From Tenggerimyces flavus (GTDB lineage: Bacteria; Actinomycetota; Actinomycetes; Propionibacteriales; Actinopolymorphaceae), in assembly GCF_016907715.1 (NCBI RefSeq), contig NZ_JAFBCM010000001.1, positions 7,006,001 to 7,070,000 of the forward strand: 64,000 bases of DNA. The letters are read 5' to 3'. Positions 16,112 through 30,138 of the stretch are shown piece after piece. The translations under genes were made by a program, and so were the position numbers. The notes beneath the pieces were generated by a model, which did no database searches, had not been told where the DNA came from, and saw only the letters and a list, made by a program, of their open reading frames with translations. Position 1 is the first letter of the stretch. Every line of letters begins with the position of its first letter.

Positions 16112-17863
16112 GTGCGATCCCACCAACACGACGAGGACGAGCTCGAACGCCAGCAGGCGTTGCGCCGCGCCACCCCGGACAGCTCGGCTTCCACTCCGGT
16201 CGCGGCGGACGCCGTCCTGCGGCTGCAACGAACAGCCGGCAACACGGCGGTGTCGGCACTGGTGAGTCGGCAACCCCAGGCGGTCGTGCAGCGAGACACC
16301 GGCGAGAACGAGACGTTCGACGCGTCCGACGATCCGTTCGCGCACCAGCCGGTGATCACGCCAGCCGACGACTCGATCGGCAAGCTGGTCTTCGAGCTGC
16401 GAGAGCAGGAGGACAAGGACGCTCCGCTCGGCATCACACGCCCGACGGCATCACTCGACGCCGGTGCGGCGAACCTCAGGAGCATGTCGGACTTCGCCCA
16501 GCGAACGGTGGTCCACTACGGCTCGAAGTACGGGACCGAGGACCCGTCTGACGCCGACAAGACAGGGATAGTCGACGCTGGCAAGCGGATGCTCAAGGAC
16601 TTCGTCTTCGGCAGCGACACGTCACGGGCGGTCGCCAAGGCCGCATCGGAGAACCAGAAGCAAGTGGACCACGCGACCGTCACCTCCTCCCTGCTCCGCG
16701 CCTCGCTCCTTGGCTGGCTGGACATGATCGACAGCAGCAACTCGGCGTGGGGCTATACCAGGATGCAGGCGAAGGAATGCAACATCGACCTGCTCGACAC
16801 GAAGCTGCCCGACAACGATCCGCGGCGTCTGGCGCCGCTCGGCGGAGGATCGACTCCCGACGGAGCCCAGCACCTCGACGTCGACCAGGTGGCGGCGGCC
16901 GGCAACCAGTCCGGCAAGGACGCCAAGAGCACGAACTTCAAGCAGGGGATCGACAACACGAGCCTTCTCCAGGCCAAGCGGAACCACATGGAGAAGTCCG
17001 ATTCGGCGCGAGCGAAGCAGCGCATGGCGAGCCAGCTTCTGTTCGAGGGCGCGACCAAGGCGAACGCCGAGGCGCTCAAGGCAGAAGACGACAAGAAGCA
17101 GGACTGGCAGGGGTACAAGCTCGCGTTGGATGCGGTGATCACCGCGGTCGAGGTCGGCGCTGGGGGCGCCGAGCTGCCAGAGGGCAAGGTTGCTGACCAA
17201 GTGAACGGCATGGCCAACTCCGTGAACCCTCTCGCCGAGACGGGTGGCGTGGACAAGGCGAAGCTCGCCGACTGGGGAGTGGCCGGTCTCAAGGGCGTGA
17301 TGGACGAGAAGATCGCCTCGATCGACCGCGTTATCGGAAAACTGAAGGAGGTCCAGGCGAACCGCCAGGCCGTCATCAGCGCGCAGCGCGAGATCGCCAT
17401 CGTCGAGGAGTACCAGATCGCACTTCGCGCCGAGCGCGACTCGTTGATCACCCTCGACGAGGAGAGCCAGAAGATGCTGGCCGCCATGCAGGAGTACGGC
17501 GGCGCGCTCGGTCAAGCCGTCGAGGACAAGGGCATGATGCCGAAGGGATTCTCGTCGAACGAAGCCGATCTCGTGCTCCTGGGTCGGATCCGCCAGACGA
17601 TGGTCCTGACGGAGCTTGCCACACGTTCGTCGGCTCGTACCTACGTCGATCAGCTCCGTGGGAACCTCGCCCCGCTCCAGGGGATGACGGACGGACCCTG
17701 GCCAGCGCTGGTGACCGCGGAAAGCCAGCGGAGCGCACAGATCGATGCGGTGGTGGCCGAGGCCGACCGCATCCTCGGCGTCCGGATGAAGCACCTGGAC
17801 GCCCTCCAGAGTGCCTTCCTGTCCGGCATGGCGGGTGCCGGGCAGGTCAACAAGCCCTACTGA
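16112..17863 (+). CDS. candidate CIS cargo with LQR/VQR leader
   Basis: 583 residues from GTG 16112, with GAGGGGG upstream. Residues 1-62 carry the signature seen at the front of many actinobacterial eCIS-linked proteins: LQRTAGNTAV at 38-47, then VVQRD at 58-62. The remaining about 500 residues are mostly helical and charged, rich in Ala/Lys/Glu/Asp, with likely coiled coils (QVNGMANSVNPLAETG ... AISAQ-type helices). There is no signal peptide, TM or recognised catalytic motif. Placement between the ATPase and sheath genes fits cargo or an inner-tube protein. It could instead be structural (tape or tether). The toxin idea is inference. Confidence 0.65.
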   Translation: MRSHQHDEDELERQQALRRATPDSSASTPVAADAVLRLQRTAGNTAVSALVSRQPQAVVQRDTGENETFDASDDPFAHQPVITPADDSIGKLVFELREQEDKDAPLGITRPTASLDAGAANLRSMSDFAQRTVVHYGSKYGTEDPSDADKTGIVDAGKRMLKDFVFGSDTSRAVAKAASENQKQVDHATVTSSLLRASLLGWLDMIDSSNSAWGYTRMQAKECNIDLLDTKLPDNDPRRLAPLGGGSTPDGAQHLDVDQVAAAGNQSGKDAKSTNFKQGIDNTSLLQAKRNHMEKSDSARAKQRMASQLLFEGATKANAEALKAEDDKKQDWQGYKLALDAVITAVEVGAGGAELPEGKVADQVNGMANSVNPLAETGGVDKAKLADWGVAGLKGVMDEKIASIDRVIGKLKEVQANRQAVISAQREIAIVEEYQIALRAERDSLITLDEESQKMLAAMQEYGGALGQAVEDKGMMPKGFSSNEADLVLLGRIRQTMVLTELATRSSARTYVDQLRGNLAPLQGMTDGPWPALVTAESQRSAQIDAVVAEADRILGVRMKHLDALQSAFLSGMAGAGQVNKPY

Positions 17864-19617: not shown

Positions 19618-20067
19618 ATGCCTCTCGCTGATGCCATGGACATGGCGACCGCCTACTCGTTCAGCGTCTCCATCGACGGGATCGAGGTCCCGTACGTCAT
19701 CGAGGTCAGCGGCCTCAAGACCGAGGTCGACATGGTCACGTACCAGGAACAGGCCAAGGACGGGAAGTACATCGCCCGCCAGGTCATGGGTCGGGTGAAG
19801 CCCGGCCAGATCAGCATCACCCGCGGCCTCACCGACTCCAAGACCATCACCGACTGGCTGAAGCTCGTCATGCAGGGCGACATCAAGGGCGCCCGCAAGA
19901 CCGCGGAGGTCTGCCTCTACACGTCGAACGGGGAGCAGCTCAAGCGGCTGAACTTCCGCAACGTGTGGATCAAGGACGTCGAGCTCGGCGGCTCCCTCAA
20001 GGCCGGCTCGACCGACCCGCTGACGGAGAAGTTCACGCTCTGCTGGGATGAGATGGAGTACGCGTGA
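19618..20067 (+). CDS. inner tube protein, Pvc1-like
   Basis: 149-residue T4 gp19-like tail tube protein. ATAYSFSVSIDGIEVPYVIEVSGLKTEV opens the beta-barrel, and GRVKPGQISITRGLTDSKTI and KFTLCWDEMEYA complete it. Hexameric rings of this protein stack to form the spike-tipped tube inside the sheath. It follows the sheath gene after 35 nt with AAAGGATGAAGG upstream. Its stop overlaps the next gene's GTG. Confidence 0.95.
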   Translation: MPLADAMDMATAYSFSVSIDGIEVPYVIEVSGLKTEVDMVTYQEQAKDGKYIARQVMGRVKPGQISITRGLTDSKTITDWLKLVMQGDIKGARKTAEVCLYTSNGEQLKRLNFRNVWIKDVELGGSLKAGSTDPLTEKFTLCWDEMEYA

Positions 20068-20519
20068 TGCGACGTACGCATCCCGGTGCGGTGCTGGCGG
20101 AGGAGCGCCCGGCCAACGGGCACTCCCCCGCCGACCGCCCCGACCCCGTGCTGCGGACCGAGTTCGACTTCGAGCTGCCGCGCGGGTTCGTCGACGCGGA
20201 CGGGGTCGTGCACCGCTCGGGCACGATGCGGCTCGCGACCGCGCGCGACGAGCTGTTGCCGCTGTACGACGCGCGGGTACAGGAGAACGCGGCGTTCACG
20301 ACCGTCGTTCTGCTCGCCCGGGTGATCACGCGGCTCGGGACGCTCTCGCGGATCGACGCGCAGGTCGTGGAGAACATGTTCGCCTCCGACGTCGCGTTCC
20401 TGCAGGACCTCTATCGCCGGGTGAACTCCGAAGGCCACACGCGTGCTGGCGTGACGTGTCCGTCCTGCCAGCACCCGTTCACGGTCGACATCGCGGGTGG
20501 GCGCCTGGGGGAATCGTGA
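20064..20519 (+). CDS. CIS accessory protein with C-terminal CxxC
   Basis: 151 residues (GTG 20064, or ATG 20067), coupled to the tube gene. The middle reads TEFDFELPRGFVDADGVVHRSGTMRLATARDEL, then a helical part (RVITRLGTLSRIDAQVVENMFASDVAFLQDLYRRVN). The C-terminal CPSCQHPF could bind zinc. This combination is found in the same position of actinobacterial CIS operons and resembles phage tail-assembly chaperones placed after the tube gene. A chaperone or adaptor role is inference. Confidence 0.75.
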   Translation: MMRRTHPGAVLAEERPANGHSPADRPDPVLRTEFDFELPRGFVDADGVVHRSGTMRLATARDELLPLYDARVQENAAFTTVVLLARVITRLGTLSRIDAQVVENMFASDVAFLQDLYRRVNSEGHTRAGVTCPSCQHPFTVDIAGGRLGES

Positions 20520-20674
20520 CGTACGCGACCAGCCGGCTGCACGAGGAGGTTGCGTACGTCGCCTATCACTTCCACTGGGCGATGGACGAGATCCTCGACC
20601 TCGAGCACCCGCTGCGCCGGCAGTACGTCGAGGAGATCGCCCGCATCAACAAGCGCATGAGTGAAGGAGATTGA
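20516..20674 (+). CDS. DUF6760-type small CIS protein (52 aa)
   Basis: Very short gene from GTG 20516, overlapping the previous stop (GTGA). It reads TYATSRLHEEVAYVAYHFHW, then MDEILDLEHPLRRQYVEEIARINKRMSEGD. The pattern HEEVAYxAYHFHW...LDLxHPxRRxxVxxIxxIN matches the small DUF6760 family that accompanies actinobacterial CIS and phage-tail genes. In tailed phages, a second small protein after the tube gene often acts with the first as an assembly chaperone; that parallel is inference. Confidence 0.8.
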   Translation: MTYATSRLHEEVAYVAYHFHWAMDEILDLEHPLRRQYVEEIARINKRMSEGD

Positions 20675-20677
20675 CCG

Positions 20678-22867
20678 GTGGCACCGCGCGAGGTGACTGA
20701 GCCTGCATCCGAGGGGGATGCGGGCTTCCTCGCGCTGCCGCCGTTGTCACCTGGGTTGACCGCTCCGGGGTCGACGTTGCGGATGGATGGCTCGTCCTGG
20801 ATCAGTACCTGGCGGTCGCCGGGCTTCATGACGGGGATGAGCCACCTGGTCTCGCCGGACGCGCCGTCGGGCGTGGTGGCGGACCTTGTCAAGCCGGGCT
20901 TGCCGATCCAGCGGATGGTGGACGGGGACCTGACGTTGCGGCCCCTGCCTCGTCGCCCTTCTGCCGACGGGGTTGACGAATCTCCGCCCGATCCACCAGC
21001 GACGGGTCTGCGCGGGTTCGTCCAACGGTTGTTCCGCCGCCGGCCCACTCCCGCACCGGCTCCCGCCTTGGAGCCGACGCAGAGCGCACCTCTCGACTCG
21101 GGGGAACCCACCGCCCCCACGGTGGTTCCCACCCTGCCGCAAGCACCGCTTCCCCCTGTCCTGCGGTTGCCTGCGGTCGCCGCGCCCGTACCGTCCCCAG
21201 AACTGGTGCGGGCGCCACTGCCGGACCTCCCGCCCCGACGCGTCGCTGCCTCCCACTCCAGTGACGGGTCAGGGCGGGAGGTCCGGCTCCCCCAGCTTCC
21301 GGTGATCCAACGCCACGCGAACGCCACGCACTCGCACCCCGCGATGCCCACGGTCCTGCCCACCGCGCCAACCCCATCGGCCACACCCACGGCGCTGGAG
21401 ACGGTCGGCCCGCTGCCCGTCGTCGCGACGCCGGAGTCACCGGACGACGTGGCCCCGCAGCCCGAGACCTCGACGACGGCACCGCCTTTGCTGCAACGAC
21501 AGATCGACGCGTCTACCCCGCCGAGTGTTCCCACCGCGCCAACCGGCTCGGTCGACTCCGTGGACCTGCCCGTGGTCGCGGCACCAGAAGCCACCACCAC
21601 CACTCCCGACCTAGTGGCCGCACCGCCGCACCAGTCGTCCACGACGGCGACGCCCTTGCTGCAGCGGCAGGTCGACGCGTCCACGCCATCGAGCACTCCC
21701 ACCACGCCGACCACACAAGCAGCACCGGCCGGCTCGGCCGCCTCCGCGGACCTGCCCGTCGTCACGACGCCGGAGTCGCCGGAGGCTTCGACGACAACGC
21801 CACCTTTGCTGCAACGCCAAATCGACACGTCCACCCGACCGAGCACTCCCACCACCCCGACGAGCTCGGACGACTCTGTGGACCTGCCCGTCGTCTCGAC
21901 ACCGGACGCACCATCGGAAACGACCTCGTCGGACCCCGTCGAAGCGCCAGCGACAGCTCTTCCCCTGCTGCAGCGTTCGGTGTCACCAGAACCCGCTCCC
22001 GCCAAGCGGCGCCGTGGACTGGGAGCACCGCTGGCCGAACGTTCGCTCCCACCGACCGTGCAGCGCACCCCTACCCCCGCTGCCAGCCCGGTGGTTCCCC
22101 AGCTCCCCCTGCCGACACCGGCACCGGCACCGGTCCTCGAGGTCGAGCCGGCTCCAGCACCGCCACTCCCCCTTCCCGACCTGCTGGTCCAGCGCACGAT
22201 CGACGAGCCCGAACCTCCTGCCCAGGTCGAGATCGCCCAAGCACCGTTGCCGCTGCCCGTCCTCCAGCCGATCCTCGCGGACCGGCCGACCGCCGTACCC
22301 GATCGAGCCACTCCTTCCACTCCGGCCGACCCACCGTCCCTCCAGGTACGCGCGATCGACCGCCCTCCCGGACGGCTCCCCCACCTCACCCCCTCGGTCG
22401 TCCAACGCACCACCACCAGCACCAGCACCAGAACCACCACCGCCGGACCGCGAACCCAGCCAGCAGACCAAGCACGGCTGGCGATGCCGACCGCACCGGT
22501 ACCCGCGATCAACCCGTTGTCCAGCGCACCCGCACCCCAGCATCGCGCCACACCCACCCAGCTGATCGCTCCGGCAACCCCGGTCGTCGTGCAACGCACC
22601 GCGAACGTCCCGCCAGCGCCCACTAGCGACCACAGGGACAGCACGTTCGTCCAACTCGCCGAGGAAGAGCCCACGCCACCACCGACGCCCAACGCCCCAG
22701 CCAGCGCACCCAACAGCGCGACCAACGCTGCCAACCCCAGCGCCACCAGCACGACCGACATCGACGGGCTGGCTCGCCGGCTCTACGACCCGATCGCACG
22801 GCGGCTCCGCGCCGAGTTGCGAGTGGACCGGGAACGCGCCGGCACGCTCGTCGACCGGCCGTGGTGA
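20678..22867 (+). CDS. proline-rich QR-repeat CIS protein
   Basis: 729 residues, start GTG 20678. Three parts: a folded N-terminus (about 1-90, GSSWISTWRSPGFMTGMSHLV), a long Pro/Thr/Ala/Val disordered centre, and a conserved C-terminal helix (about 692-727, LARRLYDPIARRLRAELRVDRERAG). The centre contains about eleven hydrophobic-Q-R motifs (IQR, LQR, VQR). Four spaced units start LLQRQ or LLQRS followed by acidic/Thr-Pro linkers (about residues 268-440). The C-terminal helix is a recurrent feature of this position in actinobacterial CIS operons (recall). Role unknown: tape measure, scaffold or cargo docking are possible. No coiled coil is seen along the disordered part. Confidence 0.7.
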   Translation: MAPREVTEPASEGDAGFLALPPLSPGLTAPGSTLRMDGSSWISTWRSPGFMTGMSHLVSPDAPSGVVADLVKPGLPIQRMVDGDLTLRPLPRRPSADGVDESPPDPPATGLRGFVQRLFRRRPTPAPAPALEPTQSAPLDSGEPTAPTVVPTLPQAPLPPVLRLPAVAAPVPSPELVRAPLPDLPPRRVAASHSSDGSGREVRLPQLPVIQRHANATHSHPAMPTVLPTAPTPSATPTALETVGPLPVVATPESPDDVAPQPETSTTAPPLLQRQIDASTPPSVPTAPTGSVDSVDLPVVAAPEATTTTPDLVAAPPHQSSTTATPLLQRQVDASTPSSTPTTPTTQAAPAGSAASADLPVVTTPESPEASTTTPPLLQRQIDTSTRPSTPTTPTSSDDSVDLPVVSTPDAPSETTSSDPVEAPATALPLLQRSVSPEPAPAKRRRGLGAPLAERSLPPTVQRTPTPAASPVVPQLPLPTPAPAPVLEVEPAPAPPLPLPDLLVQRTIDEPEPPAQVEIAQAPLPLPVLQPILADRPTAVPDRATPSTPADPPSLQVRAIDRPPGRLPHLTPSVVQRTTTSTSTRTTTAGPRTQPADQARLAMPTAPVPAINPLSSAPAPQHRATPTQLIAPATPVVVQRTANVPPAPTSDHRDSTFVQLAEEEPTPPPTPNAPASAPNSATNAANPSATSTTDIDGLARRLYDPIARRLRAELRVDRERAGTLVDRPW

Positions 22868-22887: not shown

Positions 22888-23325
22888 ATGACCGAGACCA
22901 CGGAACTCCCCGCGTTCGGCGTGCGCTTCAACGTCCAGGTCGACGACGTCGACCTGGGCTCGTTCATCAGCTGCGAGGGCCTCGGCGTCGAGGTCGTCAT
23001 GGAACAACGCCAAGAGGGCGGCAACAACAGCTACATCTGGAACCTCCCCTCGCGCGTCAAGTACCCCAACATCAAGCTCACCAGGCCGCTCACCAAGGAG
23101 ACCGAACGCGTCGCGCGCTGGATCTCCGGCCTCGCTGGCGGGGTACGGCGCCGGACCGGACAGATCACCGCGATGACCACCAACGGCGACGTCGTCGCGC
23201 GCTGGGGACTGGTCGACGTCGTCCCCGTGCGCTGGACCGGCCCGAGCCTCGCCAAGGGCAACGCCGACGTCCTCACCGAGACGATCGAGATCGCCCACCA
23301 CGGCTTCATCGACACCGGCGCGTAA
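22888..23325 (+). CDS. second tube-type protein, Pvc5-like
   Basis: 145-residue gp19-family tail tube protein (FGVRFNVQVDDVDLGSFISCEGLGVEV; QEGGNNSYIWNLPSRVKYPNIKLTRPL; ETIEIAHHGFID). It differs from the main tube protein at 19618. In CIS such minor tube proteins form the layers joining the tube to the spike hub. The gene lies just before the LysM tube-cap gene, which fits that place. GAGAGGAC-like purines precede the ATG. Confidence 0.93.
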   Translation: MTETTELPAFGVRFNVQVDDVDLGSFISCEGLGVEVVMEQRQEGGNNSYIWNLPSRVKYPNIKLTRPLTKETERVARWISGLAGGVRRRTGQITAMTTNGDVVARWGLVDVVPVRWTGPSLAKGNADVLTETIEIAHHGFIDTGA

Positions 23326-26646: not shown

Positions 26647-28592
26647 CCTTGCCGGCTCCCAACCTCGACGACCGACGGTTCCAGGACCTGGTCGACGACG
26701 CGAAGCGACTGATCCAGCAGCGTTGTCCGGAGTGGACCGACCACAACGTGTCCGACCCCGGTGTCACGCTGGTCGAGGCGTTCGCGACGATGGTCGACCA
26801 GCTGCTGTACCGGCTGAACCGCGTGCCTGAGCGGCACTATCTGCGCTTCCTCGATCTGGTCGGCGTGCAGTTGTTTCCGCCGGCCGCGGCGCGGACCGAC
26901 GTGACGTTCTGGCTGTCCGCCGCGCAGCCCGAAGAGGTCACCGTGCACGCGGGGACCGAGGTCGCGACCGTACGCACCGAGCACGACGAGGCCGTGGGGT
27001 TCACGACCACGGACGAGCTGCCGATCGTGCCGTGCGAGCTCGCCGCGGTGTCGACTCGGTTGGCTGAGGAGGCTCCGACCGATCGGTCGATCGAGCTGCG
27101 GGACGGGCTGGGCTTCGAGGTGTTCTCGCACACTCCGGTGCCGGGTGACACGTTCTATATCGGGCTGACGAACGCCGTTCCCTCCTGTGCGGTGCTGTTG
27201 GAGTTCACCTGCCGGGTCGAGGGTGTGGGCGTCAACCCGTTGGATCCGCCCCTGCGTTGGGAGGCGTGGGACGGCAACGACTGGGTGCCGTGTGTGGTCG
27301 ACCGGGACGAGACCGGTGGGTTGAACAAGCCGGGCGAGGTGGTGCTGCACGTTCCGCGCGGGCACGTGCCTTCGGTGATCGCGCAGCAGCGGGCTGGGTG
27401 GATCCGGTGCGTGTTGCTCGCGCCGGAGGAGGGTCAGCCGTTCTACAGCGCTTCGCCGACGGTGTCGGAGCTCGCGGCTTCGACCGTGGGTGGCACGACG
27501 AGTGTGGTGCACGCGGAGCCGATCTTGGCCGAGGAGGTCGGGCGGAGCGACGGCACGCCGGGGCAGCAGTTCCGGCTGCAGCGCGCGCCGGTGGTGCGTT
27601 CCGACGAGCCCGAGGTGCTGGAGGTGGGCAGCGACACCGGCTGGGAGTCGTGGGAGCTGGTGGAGGACTTCACCCAGTCGGGACCGGTGGATCGGCACTT
27701 CGTGCTGGACCGGCAGTCTGGCGTTCTGCGGTTGGGTCCTGCTGTTCGCGAGCCTGACGGGACGTACCGGCAGCATGGCCTTGCTCCCGCGAAGGGTGCG
27801 GTGCTGCGGATCCGCCGTTATCGCACCGGCGGTGGCTCGGCCGGCAACGTCGGGGCGCAGGCACTGCGGGTGCTGAAGACGTCGATCCCGTTCGTGTCCC
27901 GGGTCGAGAACCGCTCGCCTGCGCTGGGCGGGGTCGATGGCGAGGGCGTGTCGGACGCGATGGTGCGCGGGCCTCTGGAGTTGCGGACCCGGCAGCGGGC
28001 GGTGACACCGGAGGACTACGAGCTGCTGGCTCGGGACGCGGCGCCGGATCTCGCGCGGGTGCACTGCGTACCGGCCTCGTCCGAGGACCCCGATCCAAAT
28101 GTGGTGCGGCTGTTGGTCGTCCCCGGGGTGCCCGGGGATCCGTCGAGCCAGCTGGACTTCCTGGCTTTGCGTCCCGCCGACGAGGTGCTGTCCCGGGTCG
28201 CTACGCACCTCGAGCCTCGGCGGACGTTGGGCGCGCGGCTGCTCGTGGAGCCGCCTTTCTATCGCGGCGTCACCGTGGTGGCGAAGCTTCAGGCAAGGTA
28301 CGACGCGGCGCCGCGGCGGCTGCGGGTCGCGGCAGTGACGGCGTTGTACGAGTTCCTGCATCCGTTGGTGGGTGGGCCTGCGGGGACGGGCTGGCCGTTG
28401 GGTCGGGCGGTGCAGACGGGTGACATCCACGCGTGCCTGCAGCGGGTGGAGGGCGTGGACTCGGTGGACGACGTTCGGTTGTACGCGGCCGACCCGGTGC
28501 AGGGGACGCGGGCGGAGACGCCGTTGCAGCGGATCGAGCTGGGGCGGACCGAGCTGGCGTTCTCGTTCGAACATCAGGTGCTGGTCCAGTGA
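26643..28592 (+). CDS. baseplate assembly protein, Pvc11/gpJ-like
   Basis: 649 residues from ATG 26643 (overlap with gp25 stop). The N-terminus has NLDDRRFQDLVDDAKRLI, then WTDHNVSDPGVTLVEAFATMVDQLLYRLNRVPERHYLRFLDLVG-type sequence, the signature of CIS baseplate proteins. The C-terminal half has the gpJ-like ELRTRQRAVTPEDYELLARD and YEFLHPLVGG. It builds the wedge of the baseplate with the next gene's product. The length is normal. Confidence 0.94.
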   Translation: MTLPAPNLDDRRFQDLVDDAKRLIQQRCPEWTDHNVSDPGVTLVEAFATMVDQLLYRLNRVPERHYLRFLDLVGVQLFPPAAARTDVTFWLSAAQPEEVTVHAGTEVATVRTEHDEAVGFTTTDELPIVPCELAAVSTRLAEEAPTDRSIELRDGLGFEVFSHTPVPGDTFYIGLTNAVPSCAVLLEFTCRVEGVGVNPLDPPLRWEAWDGNDWVPCVVDRDETGGLNKPGEVVLHVPRGHVPSVIAQQRAGWIRCVLLAPEEGQPFYSASPTVSELAASTVGGTTSVVHAEPILAEEVGRSDGTPGQQFRLQRAPVVRSDEPEVLEVGSDTGWESWELVEDFTQSGPVDRHFVLDRQSGVLRLGPAVREPDGTYRQHGLAPAKGAVLRIRRYRTGGGSAGNVGAQALRVLKTSIPFVSRVENRSPALGGVDGEGVSDAMVRGPLELRTRQRAVTPEDYELLARDAAPDLARVHCVPASSEDPDPNVVRLLVVPGVPGDPSSQLDFLALRPADEVLSRVATHLEPRRTLGARLLVEPPFYRGVTVVAKLQARYDAAPRRLRVAAVTALYEFLHPLVGGPAGTGWPLGRAVQTGDIHACLQRVEGVDSVDDVRLYAADPVQGTRAETPLQRIELGRTELAFSFEHQVLVQ

Positions 28593-28603
28593 GGGGGACG
28601 ACG

Positions 28604-29143
28604 ATGCGTGGGCTGGTCTCGGACCTGGTGAATCCTCAGCCGCTGTTGGGCATTCTGCCGTCGCTGTATCACGAGGACGACGTGACGGTGCGGTTCATGT
28701 CGGCGTTCGACGACAGCTTGGCGCCGGTGTTCTCGACGTTGGACAACTTCTCGACGTACCTCGATCCCTCGTTGGCGCCGGACGACTTCGTGCGGCTGTT
28801 GGCGCACTGGGTGGCCTCGTTCGACGACGTGCGGCTGCCGGAGTCGCGGCGGCGGTTGCTGGTCTCGCGGGCGGTGGAGTTGCACGCGCTGCGCGGGACG
28901 CGGGCCGGGTTGGAGGAAACGATCCTGGTCGCCTGCGGGGTGTCCGCGACGGTGTCGGAGTCGGGCGGGACGTCCTGGTCGTCCGAGGCGGGTGGCTCGC
29001 CGCCCGGCTCAGCTCGCGCCGAGATCGTGGTGCGGGTGGCAGGAACGGCGGACGTGGGACTGGTGACGCGCGTGGTGGAGGCGCTCCGGCCGGCGCACGT
29101 GCCGGCGCGGGTCGAGGTGGTCGAGGAAGGCGGCGGATCGTGA
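28604..29143 (+). CDS. baseplate protein, gpI/Pvc12-like
   Basis: 179 residues. I chose ATG 28604 because GAGGGGG lies 6 nt upstream. GTG 28589 would overlap the previous stop and add five residues. The protein begins with LVNPQPLLGILPSLYHEDDVTVRFMSAFDDSLAPVFSTLDNF-type sequence, the P2 gpI-like tail fold used as the second wedge component. It is shorter than Pvc12 of gammaproteobacteria, as usual in actinobacterial systems. Its stop overlaps the next GTG (GTGA). Confidence 0.9.
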   Translation: MRGLVSDLVNPQPLLGILPSLYHEDDVTVRFMSAFDDSLAPVFSTLDNFSTYLDPSLAPDDFVRLLAHWVASFDDVRLPESRRRLLVSRAVELHALRGTRAGLEETILVACGVSATVSESGGTSWSSEAGGSPPGSARAEIVVRVAGTADVGLVTRVVEALRPAHVPARVEVVEEGGGS

Positions 29144-30138
29144 TCATCTGCAAGAGTTGCGGGGAGCACAACGAGGACGGCACGGCGTTCTGCGTGCGGT
29201 GTGGGGTCTTCCTGGAGTGGGAGGGCGAACGGGTCCCTGACCCTTCGGCCCCTGCTGAGGCTCCGGAGGAGGAGCAGCCGGTCCCGGTGGCGGCGGGGGC
29301 TGCGGTGGCTCCCGATGTGGCCGCCCGCCAGCCGGAGCAGACGAAGAAGAAGCGCCTGGCACCGCGCAAGCCGCCGTCGAACGTACCGACCGGCTCGTTG
29401 ATCTGCGGCTCCTGCGCGATGCCGAACGAGTCGTCCCGCCGCTTCTGCGCGCGCTGCGGCAACTCGCTGGCCGAGGCCCGCGTGGTCCGCAAGACCGCCT
29501 GGTGGCGGCGGCTGTTCGGGCGAGAGCGCATCTACGAACCGGGGACGCGCAAGCGCGTAGGAACAGCCCGCCGCCGCACCCGCACGTTCGTCCGCCTCGG
29601 CGTCGTCCTCGCGTTGCTAGGCGGCGCGGGCATCCTGGCCGGACCGCAACGGGGCCTGGTCGTGCGGGGCTACCACTCAGTGGTCGACCTCTTCGCCAAA
29701 CCCGAACCAGCCCGCCCGGTAGCGACCGGAACAACAGGCGCGGTGAAATCCCACCCCGCCGCGCTGGCCTTCGACGGAGCGCAGAACACGTACTGGGCCT
29801 TCCCGGCCAACAAGCCCAAGATCTCCCCGGTGCTTCGAGCCACCTTCCCCGGGCCCGTCCGCCTGGTGGGCTTCGCCCTCTTCCCAGGAGTATCGATCGA
29901 GACCTCGAAATTCCTCGCCGCCACCCGCCCCGAGCAGATCGAGCTCGCCGCGACGAAGTCCGACGGCCAAGTGGTGGTGAAGCGCTTCCCGGTCGAGGAC
30001 AAGCCAGGAGAGCAGAAGTTCGAGTTCAAAGAATCAGACATCACCAAAGTCCAGCTAGCCGTCATCTCCAGCCGCGGCGAACACAAAACCCTGGCCACCG
30101 CCATCACTGAGCTGGAGTTCTTCAAAGCCCGCAGCTAG
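29140..30138 (+). CDS. zinc-ribbon single-TM protein, CisA-like
   Basis: 332 residues from GTG 29140. Two zinc ribbons are visible, with Cys at 4/7/18/21 and 89/92/103/106. They are separated by an acidic Pro-rich linker. A basic stretch (RKRVGTARRRTRT) precedes one TM helix at about 150-170, and a C-terminal beta domain (about 200-332) has a discoidin/glycan-binding look (HPAALAFDGAQNTYWAFP). The ribbons should be cytoplasmic and the beta domain external. This layout, and its place as last gene of the CIS operon, match what I recall of Streptomyces CisA, which links the cytoplasmic CIS to the membrane. Homology not tested. Confidence 0.8.
   Translation: MIICKSCGEHNEDGTAFCVRCGVFLEWEGERVPDPSAPAEAPEEEQPVPVAAGAAVAPDVAARQPEQTKKKRLAPRKPPSNVPTGSLICGSCAMPNESSRRFCARCGNSLAEARVVRKTAWWRRLFGRERIYEPGTRKRVGTARRRTRTFVRLGVVLALLGGAGILAGPQRGLVVRGYHSVVDLFAKPEPARPVATGTTGAVKSHPAALAFDGAQNTYWAFPANKPKISPVLRATFPGPVRLVGFALFPGVSIETSKFLAATRPEQIELAATKSDGQVVVKRFPVEDKPGEQKFEFKESDITKVQLAVISSRGEHKTLATAITELEFFKARS

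What the first reader, a model, noticed from the sequence alone, without database searches (positions are those of the whole stretch)
20678..22867. Proline-rich protein with about eleven hydrophobic-Q-R motifs
IQR/LQR/VQR motifs recur through a disordered 600-residue linker, four of them in longer repeat units (LLQRQ...). The same motif occurs twice in the leader of the cargo-like 16112 protein. A shared short motif suggests a common docking partner, or processing at Q-R.
Basis: partly seen in the sequence, partly recalled or inferred. Interest (0 to 1): 0.6.

Follow-up and report, generated by a model that had tools for sequence, protein, structure and literature searches.

The report
Multi-site docking scaffold of injection nanomachine
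A floppy, unnamed protein in a bacterial injection-machine gene cluster carries eleven copies of a short tag (hydrophobic residue, glutamine, arginine) that its relatives keep and that also flanks the mysterious cargo-associated domain DUF4157 in bacteria and archaea, so it is probably a tether that gathers cargo for loading.

Summary
Window 20678-22867 encodes a 729-residue protein with 11 QR dipeptides, all preceded by I, L or V (about 0.4 expected). It lies in a contractile injection system (CIS) cluster between a tail-assembly-chaperone/DUF6760 pair and the second tube gene, matches no Pfam, NCBIfam or PHROG family, and is modelled as disordered except for helix 694-720. A homologue sits at the same place in 79 of 80 named actinobacterial loci; 67 of 69 full-length ones keep at least 4 motifs (median 9), as P-x-[VIL]-Q-R-[STA]-[VA]-[DE]. 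Motif Q and R are 87% conserved where overall identity is 53%.

The motif tracks DUF4157, the eCIS core domain of unknown role: it flanks DUF4157 in actinobacteria, cyanobacteria, proteobacteria, Deinococcus and haloarchaea (76 seen, 11 expected outside actinobacteria). QR-less Kribbella clusters lack cluster-linked DUF4157 yet keep sheath, tubes and ATPase. In two clusters DUF4157 is fused into the protein and the motifs nearly vanish. Best reading: a disordered multivalent tether that docks DUF4157 and cargo near the tube initiator. Binding is inferred, not shown; about two independent losses support the link. Rivals: tape measure, proteolytic sites.

The parts
20678..22867 (+). QR-repeat scaffold protein, 729 aa, disordered, proline-rich (145 P)
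   Evidence: homologues at the same place in 79 of 80 named loci
20714..20992 (+). conserved N-terminal block (residues 13-105; WxSTWRSPxFM...H..V..DAPSG)
   Evidence: 56% identical to A. pittospori over 13-105; consensus; a loose N-block pattern in 69 of 112 members
20906..22597 (+). array of eleven [ILV]QR motifs, first to last
   Evidence: conservation
21413..21907 (+). four LPVVxxP[ED] repeats interleaved with the LLQR units
22007..22033 (+). RRRGLGAPL mid-protein motif (residues 444-452)
   Evidence: GLGAP or GLGEP in 85 of 112 members over 450 aa
22757..22837 (+). conserved C-terminal helix (residues 694-720), proposed anchor
   Evidence: AF2 block pLDDT 93 and 91 for 701-720; HMM finds it in 123 of 132 loci
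20064..20519 (+). tail assembly chaperone-like protein (phrog_508)
   Evidence: E 2.8e-5
20501..20674 (+). DUF6760 protein (start codon not determined)
   Evidence: PF20546, E 1.1e-14
22888..23325 (+). second tube protein (tube initiator-like), next gene downstream
   Evidence: PF06841; used as synteny anchor
16112..17863 (+). cargo-like protein with LQR (16223-16231) and VQR (16286-16294) in its leader
   Evidence: 53% identical over 582 columns to the DUF4157-cargo fusion of A. pittospori

Best explanation
The protein is an intrinsically disordered, multivalent docking tether of actinobacterial contractile injection systems. Its C-terminal helix, perhaps with the N-terminal block, holds it to the particle or an assembly intermediate near the tube initiator encoded next to it. 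Its repeated P-x-[VIL]-Q-R-[STA]-[VA]-[DE] motifs capture DUF4157 (eCIS core) proteins and the leader-bearing cargo that travels with them, raising their local concentration for loading. The same motif flanks DUF4157 in its own proteins and opens cargo leaders, so DUF4157, or a complex containing it, is the most likely reader of the motif. Shown: the motif, its conservation, its presence in scaffold, DUF4157 proteins and cargo leaders, and its joint loss with DUF4157. Inferred: physical binding, the anchoring site, and a role in loading.
For: Motif beyond chance in the window and in 61 of 65 homologues, which exceed all 1000 shuffles; extended consensus over 1355 QR sites; motif Q/R kept in 843 of 966 cases against 190 of 490 other Q and 899 of 1540 other R. 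Motif in DUF4157 proteins: all 16 found in the 80 named loci have at least two [ILVMA]QR; 17 of 19 from other phyla have it, 76 copies against 11.2 expected, while nine related patterns gave 0.18-1.95 times expectation. Joint loss: Kribbella G025 and G050 have 0 QR and no DUF4157 above cut-off; G033, another cluster subtype, likewise; five QR-rich Kribbella genomes have a DUF4157 gene 6-7 kb upstream. Fusion: in L200 and L202 DUF4157 lies inside the scaffold, which then has 2 and 1 motifs. Conserved parts as partners are disfavoured. Published: Sle2 (DUF4157) binds tube initiator SlpT2 and cargo Sle1 (PMC13277306 section 5).
Against: No binding was shown. AF2 of a Sle2-type DUF4157 protein leaves its VQR tail disordered (pLDDT under 50 for 195-234), with no docking into the domain. 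G057 has 0 QR but one DUF4157 protein on another contig (its leader reads LGR, not LQR). G171 has a QR-rich scaffold and no DUF4157; it also lacks a sheath gene, so I read it as a remnant. Joint loss rests on about two independent events (one Kribbella clade, G033). G025 and G057 have other genes between tube2 and spike, so partial decay is possible there. Haloferax has QR-bearing DUF4157 proteins but no scaffold, so the motif has a role without it. The scaffold was not found in 6 fetched loci of more distant cluster types nor in G401.
Confidence: 0.5

Rival explanations
1. The protein is the tape measure of these particles: it sets tube length, and the QR motifs bind the tail-assembly chaperone encoded next door, as phage chaperones coat the phage tape measure (phage analogy recalled).
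For: It follows a tail-assembly-chaperone-like gene and DUF6760, and S. coelicolor particles have one length although no tape measure gene was recognised (PMC12237407 section 6). The backbone persists without QR, so it has some cargo-independent role.
Against: One short helix and no long coiled coil in the model. QR is lost while the chaperone stays 81-90% identical to the window's. It does not explain the motif in DUF4157 proteins and leaders. Members range widely in length, for example 542 to 1338 aa.
Confidence: 0.17
2. Q-R is a processing site: a protease, possibly DUF4157 itself (HExxH), cuts scaffold, leaders and tails after R.
For: The consensus with a small residue after R could suit a protease site; DUF4157 has a conserved HExxH and goes missing together with the motif. 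DUF4157 is described as a putative metallopeptidase (PMC8213781 passages).
Against: Up to 25 sites in one tether would shred it. The DUF4157 model has only a non-significant PDB match to a metallopeptidase (abylysin, E 1.0, probability 0.60). No cleavage data were available.
Confidence: 0.13
3. All QR motifs (scaffold, leaders, tails) dock onto one conserved machine part such as the tube lumen, ATPase or baseplate hub.
For: The motif is shared by three classes of protein, and DUF4157 proteins in Haloferax carry it although there is no scaffold.
Against: QR-less Kribbella clusters keep sheath (80%), tube1 (81-83%), tube2 (77-78%) and ATPase (61-74%) close to the window, and the spike (64-67%). 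This weakens but does not exclude it, since those clusters also lack the cargo that would need docking.
Confidence: 0.15
4. The motifs are a by-product of low complexity and local repeat expansion, without function.
For: Proline-rich low-complexity protein; four of the eleven motifs lie in a local repeat.
Against: Shuffles, extended consensus, codon diversity, preferential conservation, and presence in DUF4157 proteins of other phyla.
Confidence: 0.02

Closest known systems
Sle2/Sle1 pair of Streptomyces lividans CIS (PMC13277306, sections 5 and 10 read)
   Same: DUF4157 protein linking cargo to the tube initiator, upstream of the sheath in actinobacterial CIS clusters; the Sle2-type proteins seen here carry the QR motif
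   Different: The scaffold is another gene, between the DUF6760 gene and tube2; the sections I read do not mention it or the motif
Tme (BN159_7576) of Streptomyces davawensis CIS (PMC11126660, passages)
   Same: Largely disordered DUF4157 protein encoded just upstream of baseplate genes and co-purifying with tube initiator and spike; like the DUF4157-scaffold fusions L200 and L202
   Different: Tme also has tape-measure-like, transmembrane and endonuclease parts; the window protein has none of these and no DUF4157. Tme's sequence was not compared here
CisA (SCO4242) of S. coelicolor CIS (PMC12237407, sections 6 and 7 read)
   Same: Disordered accessory protein of an actinobacterial CIS
   Different: [quoted passage not shown] the window protein ends in a short helix and lies upstream of tube2
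Cgo1 and Cgo2 of AlgoCIS (PMC8894135, passages)
   Same: DUF4157 proteins with a disordered N-terminal part, found in the tube lumen
   Different: They are cargo; no scaffold is described in the passages seen. Their QR content was not checked
N-terminal signal peptides of PVC and Afp cargo (PMC11495950 and PMC11297309, passages)
   Same: Disordered leaders that mark cargo for loading
   Different: No conserved sequence was detected there; here leaders share LQRxxGN. ATPase recognition is proposed there; here the ATPase is not favoured

Membership tests
Phage/eCIS tape measure protein | gene follows tail-assembly chaperones | tested here: met
   phrog_508-like gene and DUF6760 directly upstream
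Phage/eCIS tape measure protein | long helical or coiled-coil chain, often with transmembrane helices | tested here: not met
   one helix of 27 residues in 729
Phage/eCIS tape measure protein | length sets tube length | not testable with these tools
   no particle lengths paired with scaffold lengths
DUF4157 (eCIS core, PF13699) protein | DUF4157 domain with HExxH | tested here: not met
   no Pfam match to the window protein; present inside relatives L200 and L202 only
CisA | transmembrane segment plus periplasmic C-terminal domain | tested here: not met
   model has a single C-terminal helix 694-720 and no folded domain
CIS cargo with LQR leader | N-terminal LQRxxGN leader | tested here: not met
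   no RxxGN in the sequence; its first motif is LPIQRMV at residue 77
QR-repeat CIS scaffold (family defined here) | conserved C-terminal helix directly upstream of tube2 | tested here: met
QR-repeat CIS scaffold (family defined here) | at least four hydrophobic-QR motifs | tested here: met
   11; 67 of 69 named full-length members
Docking scaffold (works like) | binds partners through the repeated motif | not testable with these tools
   no complex prediction or binding data available

The most novel reading that the evidence does not exclude
Hydrophobic-Q-R is an address tag of contractile injection machines in bacteria and archaea, read by DUF4157, which works as a peptide-binding adaptor rather than, or besides, a protease; actinobacteria added a dedicated poly-tag protein that strings many adaptor-cargo complexes along one disordered chain for loading into the tube. 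This would give DUF4157, widespread in eCIS and of unknown role, a function.
Probability: 0.3. Interest if true: 0.85.

Novelty: new variant of a known kind. Interest (0 to 1): 0.66.

Why it matters
DUF4157, an eCIS core domain reported in 13 phyla, has a role that 'remains to be studied' (PMC8213781, passages), and no conserved sequence was detected in the PVC and Afp loading signals (PMC11297309, passages). A short motif shared by a scaffold, DUF4157 proteins and cargo leaders makes both questions testable with peptides and point mutants in non-pathogenic Streptomyces. In the two paper searches that bear on it (listings only) no CIS paper was listed as holding LQR or VQR as a whole word except a base-editing review (PMC10953296) that mentions CIS once and VQR once, and no CIS paper was listed with 'proline-rich' (one search showed 25 of 4,583 papers, so this is weak evidence of absence).

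Tried and rejected
A homologue scan with the whole protein found nothing in genome contigs; the neighbouring tube gene was used as anchor instead. A first C-terminal regular expression missed 16 of 80 loci and was replaced by an HMM. A DUF4157 pattern written too tightly gave zero and was corrected; one script stopped on an error part-way. A DNA pattern for leaders gave mostly unrelated matches and was not used.

G171 looked like a counterexample (QR-rich, no DUF4157) but has no sheath gene and lacks the upstream half of the cluster; I read it as a remnant but keep it as an exception in the table. G387 looked QR-poor, but the C-terminal helix and a 13-motif open frame lie in different frames; it was left out and not mended. 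G227 (truncated at a contig end) and the fused G036 were left out too; G045 is counted once, by its main cluster. Of 35 class-survey genomes with the anchor, G218, G352 and G420 were not fetched (anchor near a contig start), and no scaffold was found for G345 (contig end) or G401. Residue classes differ: [ILVM], [ILVMF] in 15 and 25, [ILVMFA] in 63, 66 (first count), 72 and 75.

AF2 of a DUF4157 protein was made to see whether VQR tails dock into the domain: they do not in the model. Its PDB fold search gave nothing at E 0.001 or better; best abylysin, E 1.0. PDB sequence searches found nothing for either protein. A viral contig scan gave 6 DUF4157 loci, of which one was used only as a query. 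The long ORF on the other strand (20566-22761) overlaps the gene; codon-position GC does not separate the two strands here (0.72/0.64/0.79 plus, 0.63/0.72/0.79 minus), so the gene call rests on synteny and homologues.

Full report
Setting. The window lies in an 8.5 Mb genome (G000). The window holds a contractile injection system (CIS): AAA ATPase, a cargo-like gene, sheath, tube, a 151-aa protein matching tail assembly chaperone family phrog_508, DUF6760, the protein in question, a second tube protein, LysM, spike, PAAR and baseplate genes (the LysM and PAAR names are my reading of the sequences).

Observation. The 729-aa protein has 11 QR dipeptides, each preceded by I, L or V. Shuffling its residues 20,000 times gave 0.42 on average and never more than 5. 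Codons differ between copies. AlphaFold2 with 22 sequences gives mean pLDDT 48 and one helix, 694-720. No Pfam, NCBIfam or PHROG family matches.

Family. With the next gene as anchor, 80 named actinobacterial loci were fetched, the best 80 of 548 confirmed, so they are the closer relatives. An HMM of the C-terminal helix finds the protein in 79; the remaining contig starts 219 bases upstream of the anchor. Of 69 full-length ones 67 have at least four [ILVM]QR, median 9, range 0-25; the exceptions are Kribbella albertanoniae (0) and Streptomyces hoynatensis (2). Over all 132 loci examined the helix was found in 123; missing were two contig ends (L103, L222), six loci of more distant cluster types (L198, L199, L203-L206) and G401. 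So the scaffold is not universal in actinobacterial CIS. Across 1355 QR sites in 102 de-duplicated QR-rich members the preceding residue is V in 828, L in 194, A in 158 and I in 63; flanks favour P two residues before that one, then S/T/A, V/A/I and D/E after the R. In 49 pairs at 40-80% identity the motif Q and R are kept in 843 of 966 cases (87%), against 39% for other Q, 58% for other R and 53% overall; these are local alignments, so well-aligning parts are over-represented. Also conserved are an N-terminal block, GLGAP or GLGEP in 85 of 112 members, and the helix.

The motif elsewhere in the machine. Among 1067 other predicted genes of these loci, 19 were enriched: 11 scaffolds missed by the first pattern, 7 DUF4157 proteins and one long ORF in L044. 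Sle2-type DUF4157 proteins read leader LQRxxGN, HExxH domain, then usually acidic tails with one to four VQR (L045 has no such tail). A leader pattern that did not ask for Q gave 33 matches in its strict form, 32 with Q before R. Other genes, after taking out these classes and any gene with six or more motifs, show 307 against 230 expected (986 genes). Outside actinobacteria, 20 hand-picked plasmid loci gave 19 proteins with HExxH (none identified in Caballeronia L268); 17 of 19 have the motif, 76 copies against 11.2 expected, while nine related patterns gave 0.18 to 1.95 times expectation. Niveispirillum and Parabacteroides have none. The copies flank the domain; a peak near -100 to -91 from HExxH is seen in both sets, where the actinobacterial leader lies. 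In the Haloferax cluster the two DUF4157 proteins carry 4 and 3 copies, each of the other 22 genes examined at most one, and there is no QR-rich scaffold. In Oscillatoria the two DUF4157 proteins have 3 and 2 copies, which is not significant (p 0.06 and 0.14).

Natural experiments. Kribbella genomes G025, G050 and G057 (K. albertanoniae) have the scaffold with N-block, GLGAPL and helix but no QR at all. G025 and G050 have no DUF4157 above cut-off and no gene between ATPase and sheath where cargo usually lies. G057 has a large gene there without any QR motif and one DUF4157 protein on another contig, whose leader reads DLGRLAGN instead of LQR. Five other genomes of the genus with QR-rich scaffolds (G009, G019, G045, G061, G065) carry a Sle2-type DUF4157 gene 6-7 kb upstream. 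In another cluster subtype, G033 has a scaffold without QR and no DUF4157, while G036 and a second cluster of G045 have DUF4157 inside the scaffold and one or two motifs. In all, QR-rich genomes are 33 with and 1 without DUF4157; QR-less, unfused ones are 1 with and 3 without (Fisher p 0.0019). The four cells were counted by hand from the listing plus G000, one entry per genome. The test treats related genomes as independent, which they are not: about two losses are seen. The QR-rich genome without DUF4157, G171, has no sheath gene.

What the QR-less clusters weigh against. Their sheath (80%), tube1 (81-83%), tube2 (77-78%) and chaperone (81-90%) are about as close to the window as, or closer than, those of QR-rich A. 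pittospori (75, 81, 74 and 83%); the ATPase is 61-74% (over part of its length in two of three; the A. pittospori locus does not hold a comparable ATPase). DUF6760 is lower (66-72% against 86%), but QR-rich Kribbella are no higher (64-66%). The spike is present in all three (64-67%). G025 and G057 have other genes between tube2 and spike, so some decay cannot be excluded there; G050 runs on through LysM, spike, PAAR and baseplate genes. A reader of the motif among these parts should have kept the motif under selection, unless the need vanished with the cargo; DUF4157 and leader-bearing cargo are what is lost.

Mechanism. I take the protein to be a disordered tether with a helix anchor and many docking sites for DUF4157-cargo complexes. 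[quoted passage not shown] the DUF4157 effector Tme co-purifies with tube initiator and spike and lies just upstream of the baseplate genes (PMC11126660, passages); two DUF4157 proteins account for the filled tube lumen of AlgoCIS (PMC8894135, passages). The anchor point, the reader of the motif and loading itself are inference. In S. coelicolor, models were built for SCO4243-4248, SCO4252-4253 and SCO4260 (PMC12237407, passage); by gene order the homologue should be among SCO4249-4251, but I did not identify it. SCO4251 was seen by mass spectrometry in at least one purification (PMC10020575, section 6).

Rivals. Tape measure: good gene position and an open need, but no long helix, and no reason for the motif in DUF4157 proteins. 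Processing: untested. Common conserved partner: weakened. They are not exclusive: the scaffold backbone persists without QR, so it probably has a second, cargo-independent role.

Noticed in passing
L200 10702-13689 (minus-oriented locus, G045 second cluster) and L202 12620-15841 (G036): Scaffold-like proteins with a DUF4157 domain inside the chain and the conserved C-terminal helix at the end; few QR motifs.
   Followed up: partly
G050, L189 and L285: A CIS cluster that looks complete from ATPase to baseplate but has no cargo gene between ATPase and sheath, and no DUF4157 in the genome above cut-off. What it would deliver is unclear.
   Followed up: no
L227 (G171): A CIS remnant: QR-rich scaffold, spike and baseplate genes without any sheath gene in the genome.
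   Followed up: partly
window 16112-17863 and L038 1482-3638: The window's cargo-like protein is a DUF4157-less version of a DUF4157-cargo fusion in A. pittospori (53% identity); the only DUF4157 gene found in the window's genome lies at G000:C1:653734, far from the cluster.
   Followed up: partly
window 22007-22033: RRRGLGAPL, a single conserved mid-protein motif of the scaffold family that is kept in QR-less members too; its role is unknown.
   Followed up: no
window 28372-30138: ORF with a double zinc ribbon (PF12773) downstream of the baseplate genes, a position like that of CisA; not compared with CisA.
   Followed up: no
L258 12774-16922 (S. clavuligerus plasmid pF1D25A): The 1383-codon scaffold frame (20 [ILVM]QR, 2 AQR) has almost no plus-strand gene listed over it in the PLSDB table, which is known to be incomplete.
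   Followed up: no
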